Positions 31,137 to 34,487 of a stretch of DNA of 35,549 nucleotides are shown here, one piece after another (positions within the stretch are counted from its first letter, which is position 1; each line of letters opens with the position of its first letter). The notes beneath the pieces were generated by a model that saw only the letters and a list, made by a program, of their open reading frames with translations, did no database searches and was not told the origin of the DNA. Origin of the DNA: Acidobacteriota bacterium (GTDB taxonomy: Bacteria; Acidobacteriota; Terriglobia; Bryobacterales; Bryobacteraceae); contig CANIVU010000093.1 in the NCBI GenBank assembly GCA_947470805.1, positions 1-35,549 of the forward strand, written 5' to 3'. Position numbers and translations under genes: made by a program.

Positions 31137-32519
31137 ATGTCCCACCCTCTCGACAACTTCCTCACTCGCCGCCAGTTGTTCCGCGCCGGCGCCACCACCG
31201 TTGGCGCCTACTCGTTCCTTCCCTTAACCGGCACTCAGGCCCGCGCCGCCCAGCCTGTAAAGCCCCGCGGCTCCGCACGTTTTGTCATATGGGTCGTGCT
31301 CGATGGCGGTGCCTCCCATCTGGACACCTGGGATCTCAAGGAAGGCCCCTGGACCCCGTCCGATTTTGATGTCCGCGAAATTCAGCCCGGCCTGAAATGG
31401 CCCATGGGGCTGTTCCCCCAACTTTCCAAGCAACTGCCCAACTCCGCTATCGTCCGGTCTCTCGAAGCCTGGGACAGCGTCCACGGTCGCGCGCAATATT
31501 ATGTGCAATCCGCGCACGCCTTGAATCCGGCCTTGCATAAAGAAATCCCCAGCGTCGGCTCCGTTGTTGCCATGGAGTGGCAACAGCGCCGCCGCTCCAC
31601 CGATTCGCTCCCCTCCTACGTCGCGCTCAATGTAACGCAGACACAAGCCGGCCTCCTCAAGTCCGGTTTCCTCCCCGCTCTCTACTCCCCGTTTCATATC
31701 CAAACCCAAACCAGCCTGTCGGCCTACACCGTCGACAATGCCGACGAAAAGGCCGAATTCCAACGCCGCTGGGCGCTCCTGAAAGACTTCGACGCCCGCC
31801 TTCGCAACGACAGTTCCCTCCAGGCGAAAGCCTATCGCGATTACAACGACCACTACGAATCCGCCGTGCGCCTCCTCTCCGACCCGCGCACCGCTCCCCT
31901 CTTCAGCCTCCCCGACGACGAGAAGAAGCGCTACGGTTCCACTCCCGTCGGCGATGCCTGCCTCATCGCCCGCAATCTGGTGGAGGCCGACTCCGGCACC
32001 CATTTCATCTTCATCCTGCATCCTGGATGGGATCATCACTCCGACATCTATCAGCGCAAGAATATTTACAAACAATCCGCCGAACTCGACCCCGCCCTCT
32101 CCAACCTCCTGCAAGACCTTGCAACGCGCAAACGTCCCGACGGCAAGTCTCTGCTCGACGAAACGCTCGTCATCTCAACCGGCGAGTTCGGCCGTACCCC
32201 GGGCCACATCACGCAAGGCCTCAAAGGCCGTGACCATTACCAGTACGCCTTCTCCGGTCTCTTCGCCGGCGGCGGCGTCAAAGGCGGCCAGATCATCGGC
32301 AAAACCAGCGACGATGGCGCCAAGGTCCTCGACGCCGGTTGGGGCGTGAAACGCTCCATTTACATGGAGGACATCGCCACCACGATTTACTCGGTCATGG
32401 GCATCGATTGGCGCAAGACCATCAAGGGCACTCCCTCCGGCCGCGACTTCTACTACATCGAACCATTCGCCTCCCAGAAGATGATCGTCAGCCGCGAGAT
32501 CGAACCGCTCTTCGGCTAG
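31137..32519 (+). CDS. DUF1501 domain-containing protein with Tat signal
   Basis: A 460-residue protein, ATG 31137, seven bases after the DUF1549 gene. A longer frame starting at 30855 was rejected because it overlaps that gene. LTRRQLFRAGATTVGAYSFLPL is a twin-arginine signal. Then FVIWVVLDGGASHLDTWD, the DUF1501 metal-site-like start (alkaline-phosphatase/sulfatase fold), and later FIFILHPGWDHHSDIYQRKN, LVISTGEFGRTPG and GRDHYQYAFSGLFAGGGVKGGQIIG, all DUF1501 hallmarks. The protein acts outside the cytoplasm, probably with its DUF1549 partner; the reaction is not known. A strong terminator follows. Confidence 0.93.
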   Translation: MSHPLDNFLTRRQLFRAGATTVGAYSFLPLTGTQARAAQPVKPRGSARFVIWVVLDGGASHLDTWDLKEGPWTPSDFDVREIQPGLKWPMGLFPQLSKQLPNSAIVRSLEAWDSVHGRAQYYVQSAHALNPALHKEIPSVGSVVAMEWQQRRRSTDSLPSYVALNVTQTQAGLLKSGFLPALYSPFHIQTQTSLSAYTVDNADEKAEFQRRWALLKDFDARLRNDSSLQAKAYRDYNDHYESAVRLLSDPRTAPLFSLPDDEKKRYGSTPVGDACLIARNLVEADSGTHFIFILHPGWDHHSDIYQRKNIYKQSAELDPALSNLLQDLATRKRPDGKSLLDETLVISTGEFGRTPGHITQGLKGRDHYQYAFSGLFAGGGVKGGQIIGKTSDDGAKVLDAGWGVKRSIYMEDIATTIYSVMGIDWRKTIKGTPSGRDFYYIEPFASQKMIVSREIEPLFG

Positions 32520-32539
32520 TTCATTCCCATCTCCATCCC

Positions 32540-32581
32540 GAACCGGCGCGCGAGCCTCCCCTCGCGCGCCGGTTCTTTTTT
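32540..32581 (+). terminator. Rho-independent terminator after the DUF1549-DUF1501 operon
   Basis: A 15-base stem, 32540-32554 (GAACCGGCGCGCGAG) with 32561-32575, is perfectly complementary, with a CCTCCC loop and six T bases immediately after (32576-32581). It lies 20 bases beyond the DUF1501 stop and ends just before the SPFH promoter. Confidence 0.95.
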
Positions 32582-32594
32582 GTGCGTTTTTCTC

Positions 32595-32622
32595 TTGACG
32601 TGGAATATCAAAGTGATATCAT
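32595..32622 (+). promoter_or_regulatory. Sigma-70 promoter of the SPFH-RHH operon
   Basis: TTGACG (32595-32600) and TATCAT (32617-32622) are each one mismatch from consensus and are separated by 16 bases. Transcription would start near 32630, about 30 bases before the SPFH ATG, which has AAGGAAGG upstream. The -10 overlaps the repeat array listed separately. Confidence 0.75.
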
Positions 32623-32631
32623 TTATATATC
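32605..32631 (+). promoter_or_regulatory. Putative operator: three ATATC boxes at 11-bp period
   Basis: ATATC occurs at 32605-32609, 32616-32620 and 32627-32631, exactly 11 bases start to start, covering the spacer, -10 and probable start site. The first two boxes also form a dyad, ATATCA-AAG-TGATAT (32605-32619), and TGATATCA (32614-32621) is a perfect palindrome. Such tandem short boxes on one DNA face are typical of ribbon-helix-helix repressors; an RHH protein is encoded in the same operon. Binding is inferred. Confidence 0.6.
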
Positions 32632-32660
32632 CATAGGCTATTTGCTCAAGGAAGGTCAAA

Positions 32661-33539
32661 ATGATCAAAGAACTTCGCATTACCGCCGCTTCCGGCTACC
32701 TCATGCTCCTCGTCGACGTTGCCCTCTACGCCGCCGCCGTCTACGCCTTCGCCAGCGTCAAGCGCGTCGAAACCATGTCGCCGGCCGTTGTCGCGTTCAG
32801 CGCTCTGGCTATCCTCTTGTTCGCCATCACCGTATCCTGCGGTTTCTTTACCGTGCAACCCAACAACGCTGTTGTTCTCCAGTTGTTCGGCAAGTACGTC
32901 GGCACCGTCAAGGACGAAGGCTTGCGTTGGGCGAACCCCTTCTACGCCAAACGCCCCGTCTCGCTGCGCACCCGGAACTTTGAAACAAACCGTCTGAAGG
33001 TAAATGATTTCGACGGGAATCCCATCGAGATCGGCGCTGTCGTTGTCTGGAAGGTCGTCGACTCCGCGGAAGCTTCGTTCCAGGTGGACAACTACGAAAA
33101 CTACGTCAACATCCAAAGCGAGTCCGCCTTGCGAACACTGGCTACCCACTACGCCTATGACTCGCACGAAAAAGATGGCATTTCCCTCCGAGCCAACACC
33201 GAAGAGATCGCCAACCGGCTTCGGCACGAAATCCAGGAACGCCTGACCGTCGCCGGCGTCTCCGTGGTAGAAGCCCGCATCAGCCATCTGGCCTATGCCC
33301 CTGAAATTGCCGCGGCCATGTTGCAACGCCAGCAGGCGTCCGCCATCGTCGCCGCCCGCTCGAAGATTGTCGAAGGCGCGGTTGGTATGGTGGAAATGGC
33401 TCTCGCCATGCTCAACGAACGCGCTGTCGTCAGCCTCGATGAGGAACGCAAAGCGGCTATGGTCTCCAATCTCCTGGTGGTCCTCTGCGGCGAGCGCAGT
33501 ACACAACCTGTCATCAATGCCGGAACACTGCACCACTAA
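32661..33539 (+). CDS. SPFH (band 7/prohibitin-like) membrane protein
   Basis: A 292-residue protein with a strong Shine-Dalgarno (AAGGAAGG). Two transmembrane helices lie at about 12-32 and 41-63, followed by an SPFH domain: [110 protein letters not shown]. The end is helical with no long coiled coil. SPFH proteins form membrane-associated oligomers or microdomain scaffolds; this one is short, and no NfeD or protease partner is present. It is instead followed ten bases later by a ribbon-helix-helix gene. Confidence 0.92.
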
Positions 33540-33548
33540 GGAACTGCC

Positions 33549-33734
33549 ATGGCAGAGCGGAAATCATTCCTGATCCGCATTGATGCGCAGACCCTCGACC
33601 TGGTCAAAGAGTGGGCGGACGACGAGTTCCGCTCACTCAACGGACAGGTCGAATTCCTGTTGCGCGACGCGCTGAAACGCGCCGGGCGGCTGAAAGCCCC
33701 AGCCGCCAAACCACCGGCAAAAGACGACAAATGA
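33549..33734 (+). CDS. Arc-like ribbon-helix-helix DNA-binding protein
   Basis: A 61-residue protein with AAGGA upstream of ATG 33549. The first part KSFLIRIDAQTLDLVKEWADDEFRS gives the beta strand and first helix, and LNGQVEFLLRDALKRAGR the second helix, matching Arc/MetJ-type RHH repressors. The tail is Ala/Pro/Lys-rich. These proteins dimerise and use the paired strands to read DNA. It is co-transcribed with the SPFH gene and probably represses their shared promoter through the ATATC repeats. Not a recognised toxin-antitoxin antitoxin, as no toxin gene is adjacent. Its TGA directly abuts the stop of the convergent DUF5995 gene. Confidence 0.88.
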   Translation: MAERKSFLIRIDAQTLDLVKEWADDEFRSLNGQVEFLLRDALKRAGRLKAPAAKPPAKDDK

Positions 33735-34487
33735 TCATTGCAACGCGTCGATAATCCGCACCACGTCCTGCGCTTCGCTTTTCACCACCATACGAATCGT
33801 CGCTCGCATGAGAAACTCCGGCGGGTCCAGCACTCCCGCCCCGATCACCGTGATTCCCGTGTCCACGGCGCCAATCGCCGCCGGCTTTTCCCCAGTCCCT
33901 AATCCCGCAAAAAACTTCGCCTGCATCCACGCCGCGTCGCGCGCCTTGGCCATGCTGAACTCCACCATCCGCTCCTCGTGCCGCCCGCCCACCGTGTCCA
34001 GCATCCACATCAGCGGTGAAACGCTTGCAATCGCGTCCTGCACGCCGTCCACCTGTTCATTCAGGATTTGATTGATCTCCTGAAAATCCCCTTGCAATGT
34101 TGCAATCGCCGGCCCAGGCGCTACTTCAGCCGCCGCCACAGCCAGATCCAGGTTGATGTGCGCATTCATTCCCAGTAACAGGTGCTGAATAATCGTCCGG
34201 TCCGCTCGCCCCGCCGCCTGGAAAGCCAGCAACCAGCATCGGCTAACCGCCTGCCCCGCCCGCCATTCGTCGTAAGCCGCCAGATACCGGTTCGCAAAGA
34301 CGACGTCCAGTCGCTCCATCCGCGCCCCGTCTTGAAACCGTCCCTGCGCGATCCCGTCTCGAACGGCTCTTGTCACCCGCCGGTACAGGGCAGGGAAGTA
34401 CCCCAGCCGCGAATGCTCTCCACGCGCCTGTTCAATGATTACCGTCAGCGCATCCACTACTTCGTCAATCGATCTGGCGAAAGGCAT
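33735..34487 (-). CDS. DUF5995 family protein
   Basis: A 250-residue protein, ATG 34487; no clear Shine-Dalgarno is present and further upstream starts would run into the divergent esterase gene. The DUF5995 hallmark HLLLGMNAHINLDLAVAAAE is present, preceded by ERLDVVFANRYLAAYDEWRAG and followed by DFQEINQILNEQVDGVQDAI. No signal peptide or membrane segment is visible; the protein is mostly helical. Function unknown. It is convergent with the RHH gene with no base between the two stop codons (TGATCA). Confidence 0.87.
   Translation of the reverse strand: MPFARSIDEVVDALTVIIEQARGEHSRLGYFPALYRRVTRAVRDGIAQGRFQDGARMERLDVVFANRYLAAYDEWRAGQAVSRCWLLAFQAAGRADRTIIQHLLLGMNAHINLDLAVAAAEVAPGPAIATLQGDFQEINQILNEQVDGVQDAIASVSPLMWMLDTVGGRHEERMVEFSMAKARDAAWMQAKFFAGLGTGEKPAAIGAVDTGITVIGAGVLDPPEFLMRATIRMVVKSEAQDVVRIIDALQ

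What the first reader, a model, noticed from the sequence alone, without database searches (positions are those of the whole stretch)
32595..33734. SPFH-RHH two-gene system with an 11-bp-periodic operator in its own promoter
Seen: ATATC boxes at 32605, 32616 and 32627 are exactly one helical turn apart and overlap the -10 of a good sigma-70 promoter; the operon then encodes a two-TM SPFH protein and a 61-residue Arc-like RHH protein. Known: RHH proteins bind short tandem or dyad boxes and often autorepress. Inferred: the RHH protein controls a membrane scaffold, possibly sensing membrane state through the SPFH partner. The absence of NfeD or protease partners makes this a different setting from classical SPFH operons.
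Basis: partly seen in the sequence, partly recalled or inferred. Interest (0 to 1): 0.7.

Follow-up and report, generated by a model that had tools for sequence, protein, structure and literature searches.

The report
Membrane-scaffold gene with its own repressor
A gene for a membrane-organising (SPFH) protein travels across many bacterial groups together with a tiny DNA-binding protein and a matching repeated DNA switch in front of the pair, which suggests that the small protein turns its own operon down.

Summary
In the window, boxes 11 bp apart overlap the -10 of an operon encoding a two-helix SPFH protein and a 61-aa Arc-like ribbon-helix-helix (RHH) protein. The underlying box is the 8-bp palindrome TGATATCA.

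Of 110 loci fetched by SPFH alone (109 distinct, window included), 107 carry the RHH gene downstream. A box pair exactly 11 bp apart lies upstream in 94 of 108 assessable loci, against 2 of 1,903 control windows; no locus has a pair at 10 or 12 bp. Boxes track the RHH gene: 114 of 115 RHH-bearing loci are boxed, against 1 of 9 RHH-less loci (that match lies inside the gene). In 101 related genomes the RHH occurs in 37 of 37 with the SPFH ortholog and 1 of 64 without; that one keeps only the SPFH tail. In 26 further genomes all 16 sites with at most 1 mismatch lie at the SPFH promoter.

Best reading: the RHH protein is a dedicated, single-target autorepressor. Binding and repression are inferred, not measured; the membrane-sensing idea is untested. 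Seven term searches of the held papers found no description of the pair. New variant of a known kind.

The parts
32540..32575 (+). terminator-like hairpin of the upstream gene (15 pairs, then T run)
   Evidence: a consensus match, 2 such sites found in 32400-33900 against a shuffle mean of 1.7
32595..32600 (+). -35 hexamer TTGACG
32603..32610 (.). operator box 1, GAATATCA (6/8 of TGATATCA)
   Evidence: register conserved in relatives
32614..32621 (.). operator box 2, TGATATCA (8/8), overlapping the -10
   Evidence: conserved across loci
32617..32622 (+). -10 hexamer TATCAT with TG before it
32625..32632 (.). operator box 3, ATATATCC (5/8), weak
32648..32655 (+). AAGGAAGG, likely ribosome-binding site of the SPFH gene
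   Evidence: sequence; read by eye
32661..33539 (+). SPFH (Band 7) protein, 292 aa, two N-terminal membrane helices
   Evidence: Pfam Band_7 1.8e-26; model pLDDT 91.5; Foldseek: stomatin, HflK/C, QmcA
33549..33734 (+). Arc-like ribbon-helix-helix protein, 61 aa, start 9 bp after the SPFH stop codon
   Evidence: Pfam Arc 2e-4; profile of 50 relatives finds P22 Arc in the PDB

Best explanation
spfh-rhh is a dedicated autoregulated operon. Dimers of the small Arc-like RHH protein bind TGATATCA palindromes set exactly one helical turn (11 bp) apart, side by side on one face of the DNA; in the window they cover the promoter spacer and the -10 and would block RNA polymerase, so that the operon holds its own output, including the SPFH membrane scaffold, at a set level. 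Shown by computation: the conserved gene pair, the conserved box array and its 11-bp phase, the near absence of the site elsewhere in the genomes scanned, and its absence where the RHH gene is absent. Inferred: that the RHH protein is the binder, that binding represses, one dimer per box, and the homeostatic role. What relieves repression, if anything, is unknown.
For: RHH gene downstream of SPFH in 107 of 110 loci fetched by SPFH alone. Pair of boxes exactly 11 bp apart in 94 of 108 loci, 0 of 108 at 10 or 12 bp, 2 of 1,903 control windows. Box present in 114 of 115 RHH-bearing and 1 of 9 RHH-less loci. RHH in 37 of 37 genomes with the SPFH ortholog and 1 of 64 without, the one being a relic without boxes. 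All 16 sites with at most 1 mismatch in 26 genomes lie within 400 bp of the SPFH start; one site in the own genome, which has nine Band 7 matches. RHH profile matches P22 Arc. The middle box contains the -10.
Against: No binding, footprint or expression data. The promoter overlap is clear in the window and plausible where a TTGACA-like hexamer sits 8-9 bp before the first box (13 of 28 Acidobacteriota relatives and 7 of 29 loci of the 'other' group), but no such -35 stood out in 49 Gammaproteobacteria. One RHH-bearing locus (L101) has only degraded boxes (6/8); two Actinomycetota and one Eisenbacteria locus have single boxes. Fourteen 2-mismatch sites lie away from SPFH in the 26 genomes. The RHH monomer model did not show the fold.
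Confidence: 0.83

Rival explanations
1. The RHH protein binds the array but activates rather than represses the operon.
For: Position over a promoter does not by itself give the sign; some RHH proteins activate (recalled).
Against: The boxes lie in the spacer and over the -10 in the window, a repressing position; the first box lies a median of 42, 47 and 44 bp before the start codon in the three groups.
Confidence: 0.06
2. Membrane-sensing version: the SPFH assembly holds or releases the RHH protein, so that the operator reads the state of the scaffold or membrane.
For: Almost obligate pairing of the two genes; the SPFH domain is probably cytosolic (more lysine and arginine before helix 1 than in the loop, 2.06 against 0.67; positive-inside rule recalled); a strongly conserved RHH surface, with W22 invariant in 50 sequences.
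Against: No conserved RHH tail for partner binding; SPFH persists without RHH in 9 loci. No interaction was tested.
Confidence: 0.2
3. Toxin-antitoxin pair, with SPFH as toxin and RHH as antitoxin and repressor.
For: One record annotates the RHH as 'toxin-antitoxin system HicB family antitoxin'; two of three off-target sites inspected stand before genes that look by eye like RHH-PIN modules.
Against: SPFH stands without the RHH gene at 9 loci, and the RHH was not found elsewhere in the three genomes and four plasmid records searched, which an unchecked toxin would not allow; no conserved antitoxin tail; no PADLOC match at E up to 0.001.
Confidence: 0.03
4. The boxes are only a conserved promoter element or the site of another regulator.
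For: The middle box contains the -10.
Against: Strict 11-bp phase and loss together with the RHH gene are not explained by a -10; of nine Band 7 matches in the genome, only this locus has the site.
Confidence: 0.05

Closest known systems
P22 Arc repressor and its operator
   Same: The RHH profile matches Arc best among solved structures (2.7e-7 for the tandem construct 1u9p, 0.0018 for Arc 1arq), with the RSxN segment shared; from memory, Arc dimers sit on half-sites about 11 bp apart and cooperate.
   Different: Here it is chromosomal, paired with a membrane scaffold, and the boxes are full 8-bp palindromes in a run of two or more.
Autoregulated RHH antitoxins (RelB, FitA)
   Same: A small RHH protein in a two-gene operon acts on its own promoter; RelB dimers bind phased repeats on one face of the DNA (passages of PMC2812701); FitA binds its operator through an RHH fold (passages of PMC3920265).
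   Different: The partner is an SPFH protein that also occurs without the RHH; the order is partner first, RHH second; RelB half-sites are 12 bp and allow no spacer.
SPFH-NfeD operons (QmcA-YbbJ, YuaG-YuaF)
   Same: Two-gene SPFH operon; the model resembles QmcA and stomatin, and QmcA is the only sequence match in the PDB (1e-4).
   Different: The partner is a DNA-binding protein, not NfeD. PMC2636767 (section 13) treats NfeD partners and says the other subgroups have none.
Band-7 and RHH genes in PspA/CesT-Tir operons
   Same: A genomic link between membrane-stress genes and an RHH regulator (passages of PMC11237479).
   Different: There the RHH gene ends a six-to-seven-gene PspA/spermine-synthase operon; no SPFH-RHH pair and no operator appear in the passages seen.

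Membership tests
SPFH / Band 7 superfamily | Band 7 domain above the curated cut-off | tested here: met
   93.7 bits against 23.6
SPFH / Band 7 superfamily | Membrane segment, SPFH fold and coiled helix | tested here: met
   model pLDDT 91.5; Foldseek 4e-14 to stomatin
SPFH / Band 7 superfamily | Forms rings or cages | not testable with these tools
   single-chain models only
HflK / HflC | Score above the NCBIfam equivalog cut-off | tested here: not met
   31.8 bits against 159.4 (HflK) and 17.6 against 134.4 (HflC)
SPFH-NfeD operon | NfeD gene beside SPFH | tested here: not met
   window neighbours are DUF1549/DUF1553, DUF1501, the RHH gene, DUF5995 and an alpha/beta hydrolase; tested in the window only
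Arc/MetJ ribbon-helix-helix proteins | Sequence match above the curated cut-off | tested here: met
   Pfam Arc 21.6 bits against 20.4; 33 of 50 relatives match Arc at E up to 0.01
Arc/MetJ ribbon-helix-helix proteins | Strand-helix-helix fold | tested here: inconclusive
   the monomer model shows one helix 13-44 and no strand, pTM 0.42; Foldseek found no match at E up to 0.001; the fold is an intertwined dimer, which was not modelled
Arc/MetJ ribbon-helix-helix proteins | Binds phased short operator repeats | not testable with these tools
   the array is there; binding needs an experiment
Type II toxin-antitoxin systems | The toxin gene is not kept without the antitoxin gene | tested here: not met
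   9 SPFH loci without RHH
Type II toxin-antitoxin systems | Antitoxin with a conserved toxin-binding tail | tested here: not met
   all invariant and nearly invariant columns of 50 sequences lie at positions 1-47 of 61
Known anti-phage defence systems (PADLOC) | Match to a PADLOC model | tested here: not met
   no match for either protein at E up to 0.001

The most novel reading that the evidence does not exclude
The pair is a pan-bacterial membrane-homeostasis module: the SPFH ring holds or releases the RHH repressor at the membrane, so that the operator reads the state of the scaffold, with a DNA site kept nearly letter for letter between Acidobacteriota, Proteobacteria, Bacteroidota, Gemmatimonadota, Deinococcota, Actinomycetota and Clostridia.
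Probability: 0.2. Interest if true: 0.8.

Novelty: new variant of a known kind. Interest (0 to 1): 0.62.

Why it matters
Bacterial SPFH proteins are widespread but mostly of unknown role; the small subfamilies 6-12 were said in 2009 to contain no documented members (PMC2636767 section 11; I did not assign this protein to a subfamily). A dedicated regulator whose operator is kept across phyla says that the dose of this scaffold is controlled, and gives a direct handle: find what lifts the repression and the scaffold's job may follow. It also gives a rule for naming small genes now labelled hypothetical, HicB antitoxin or, in one record, a PTS subunit.

Tried and rejected
Rejected: chance repeats; a plain promoter element; HflK/C membership; an NfeD setting in the window; toxin-antitoxin; a known defence system; a wide regulon, since no site with at most 1 mismatch lies away from SPFH in 26 genomes. 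Of the 14 sites with 2 mismatches elsewhere in those genomes (6 of them in one Colwellia) none was examined; of 15 such sites in the 101 relatives (my count) three were. The reversed control pattern also matched at 2 mismatches in 4 of 101 genomes and 5 of 26.

Led nowhere: AlphaFold2 of the RHH as a monomer. Seven paper searches gave no description of the pair: SPFH + ribbon-helix-helix (one paper, where the words stand in a reference title); 'band 7 protein' + 'Arc family' (none); stomatin + ribbon-helix-helix (two papers; the new one lists a CopG-type protein and a stomatin apart); TGATATCA + operator (one, seen as a listing); 'SPFH domain' + 'Arc-like' (none); flotillin + ribbon-helix-helix (two, passages); SPFH + 'Arc family DNA-binding' (none). 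This covers only the open library held here. A first scan script used a wrong motif; it was replaced and its counts are not used.

Caveats: L002 is the window itself and L034 is the same sequence as L007, so the 110 loci are 109 distinct ones, 108 besides the window; many are close relatives, so the Fisher values are optimistic. Start codons outside annotated records were chosen by my scripts. L029 (two in-frame stops in SPFH) and L031 (cut by the contig end) had no assessable upstream, 16 of 18 loci were assessable (L134 no start found, L136 no upstream). The 26 genomes were picked by me from the 80 genome-contig loci. The list of 37 SPFH genomes was taken by hand (matches of E 5.6e-51 or better).

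Full report
What is there. The window is a contig of an unnamed 8.7-Mb genome. A genome of the same genus (G011) holds a locus identical to that of a record titled 'Acidobacteria bacterium', so the host is very probably an acidobacterium. After a terminator-like hairpin (32540-32575) stands a sigma-70-like promoter, TTGACG/16/TATCAT with an extended -10, ATATC at 32605, 32616 and 32627, an AAGGAAGG stretch, an SPFH gene (32661-33539) and, 9 bp on, a 61-aa gene (33549-33734). No terminator-like site lies between them; the only other one found in 32400-33900 is inside the SPFH gene. The window neighbours are DUF1549/DUF1553 and DUF1501 proteins upstream and a converging DUF5995 gene and an alpha/beta hydrolase downstream.

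Proteins. The 292-aa protein is Band 7 (1.8e-26), far below the HflK and HflC cut-offs. Its model (mean pLDDT 91.5, pTM 0.76) has two membrane helices, an SPFH core and a helix 214-253, and resembles stomatin, HflK/C and QmcA (63 matches at E up to 0.001). More lysine and arginine stand before helix 1 than in the loop (2.06 against 0.67), which by the positive-inside rule (recalled) suggests a cytosolic SPFH domain. The 61-aa protein is Arc-like; a profile of 50 relatives finds P22 Arc among solved structures (2.7e-7 for a tandem Arc construct, 0.0018 for Arc). Invariant are K5, R10, W22, R28, S29, N31, Q33 and L42. The monomer model was poor: one helix, no strand, no Foldseek match; the fold therefore rests on sequence.

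The pair is conserved. Loci were fetched with SPFH alone: 30 from relatives (best matches only) and the best 80 of 585 from genome contigs. The RHH gene follows in 104 of 110 within 900 bp and in three more farther downstream (L047, L102, L104): 107 of 110. The offset is at most 60 bp in 69 of 103 measured loci and up to 666 bp. In 101 related genomes, 37 hold a strong SPFH ortholog and 38 the RHH, with 37 shared. The exception, G043, has no SPFH gene but a frame ending in AQPALNTGSLYP-stop just before its RHH gene, matching the SPFH C-terminus; the best box there is 5/8. I read it as a relic.

The operator is conserved. TGATATCA at 7/8 or better lies within -250..+30 of the SPFH start in 28 of 28 assessable relatives and 76 of 80 genome-contig loci; shuffled sequences reach this in 9% and control windows of the same loci in 108 of 1,903. 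Pairs exactly 11 bp apart occur in 94 of 108, against 0.13% of shuffles and 2 of 1,903 control windows; at 10 and 12 bp there are none, at 22 bp 19, at 5 bp 8, at 16 bp 7, at other spacings 0-3. With looser flanking boxes (5/8), 53 loci have three boxes in register and 42 have two. Pairs by group: Acidobacteriota relatives 22 of 28, further Acidobacteriota 10 of 10, Gammaproteobacteria 49 of 50, Bacteroidota 7 of 7, Gemmatimonadota 3 of 5, Alphaproteobacteria 2 of 2, Ignavibacteriota 1 of 1, Eisenbacteria 0 of 1 and Actinomycetota 0 of 2 (single boxes), Planctomycetota 0 of 2 (no box).

Boxes follow RHH. In the first set 104 of 105 assessable RHH-bearing loci are boxed and 0 of 3 RHH-less ones (L063, L083, L113); the odd RHH-bearing one, L101, has degraded boxes. 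From annotated plasmid and phage records 16 of 18 loci could be judged: RHH-bearing 10 of 10 boxed (Deinococcota, Alphaproteobacteria, Bacteroidota, Actinomycetota, Clostridia), RHH-less 1 of 6, that match lying at +20 inside the gene. Pooled: 114 of 115 against 1 of 9 (Fisher 7e-11; kinship makes this optimistic). Within Deinococcus two records have RHH and box, two have neither. The RHH profile finds nothing at E up to 1e-5 in three RHH-less genomes and four plasmid records (the same query works), and the operator is absent at up to 2 mismatches from those three genomes.

One target. The pattern with up to 3 mismatches has one place in the own genome, which holds nine Band 7 matches. In the 101 relatives, 34 genomes have a site of at most 2 mismatches; the 18 genomes with a site of at most 1 mismatch all have it beside the SPFH ortholog, by comparing coordinates. 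In 26 further genomes chosen by me all 16 sites of at most 1 mismatch lie within 400 bp of the SPFH start; of 24 sites with 2 mismatches 10 are there and 14 elsewhere; 5 of the 26 genomes show no site near SPFH at this stringency. Of three off-target sites looked at among the relatives, two stand before genes that look by eye like RHH-PIN toxin-antitoxin modules, which fits this kind of box being an RHH site.

Mechanism. The simplest reading is autorepression by RHH dimers, one per palindrome, side by side along one face of the DNA. In the window the array covers the spacer and the -10. A TTGACA-like hexamer at a fitting distance was seen in 13 of 28 Acidobacteriota relatives, while in Gammaproteobacteria the promoter could not be placed, so the repressing position is shown for part of the set only. 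SPFH is kept without RHH at nine loci, but RHH without SPFH only as one relic; this fits a regulator that serves SPFH and speaks against a toxin-antitoxin pair. Whether SPFH feeds back on the RHH protein is open.

Known or not. Hinderhofer et al. 2009 (PMC2636767; sections 11 and 13 read, other passages seen) treat NfeD partners and report no shared neighbour for the other subgroups. PMC11237479 (passages) notes an RHH gene in a PspA operon. PMC13086221 (12 of 30 passages) describes SPFH loci of Pseudomonas aeruginosa, none with such a pair in what I saw. Seven term searches returned no paper on the pair. Annotators call the RHH gene hypothetical, a PTS subunit, a HicB family antitoxin or an Arc family DNA-binding protein.

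Noticed in passing
L126 1880-2235 (genome G043): Relic locus: only the last residues of SPFH remain in frame before an intact-looking RHH gene; no operator.
   Followed up: yes
L068:3766-4047, L051:3764-4114, L040:3946-4359: In Lysobacterales a small hydrophobic ORF stands between SPFH and RHH (94, 117 and 138 aa); no Pfam match above its cut-off.
   Followed up: partly
L098:3865-4020 and L098:4026-4511: In a flavobacterium a DUF4177 protein and a 162-aa protein without Pfam match stand between SPFH and RHH.
   Followed up: partly
L114 1219-1510 and L116 784-1045: Sites like this operator stand in front of genes that look by eye like RHH-PIN (VapBC-type) modules in genomes without this SPFH ortholog.
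   Followed up: partly
L101, upstream of the SPFH start: A planctomycete bearer of the RHH gene shows TGATATAT-like repeats at 11 bp instead of TGATATCA, a possible shift of specificity.
   Followed up: no
L119 2250-2447: The RHH gene of Deinococcus sp. QL22 is annotated as 'PTS ascorbate transporter subunit IIC', very probably an error.
   Followed up: partly
phage records H16-H22: Seven 'phage' records hold the SPFH gene; the three opened are UNVERIFIED assemblies, perhaps bacterial contamination.
   Followed up: partly
own genome: The genome has nine Band 7 matches; one reading frame (C130:6688-7329) contains an in-frame stop.
   Followed up: no
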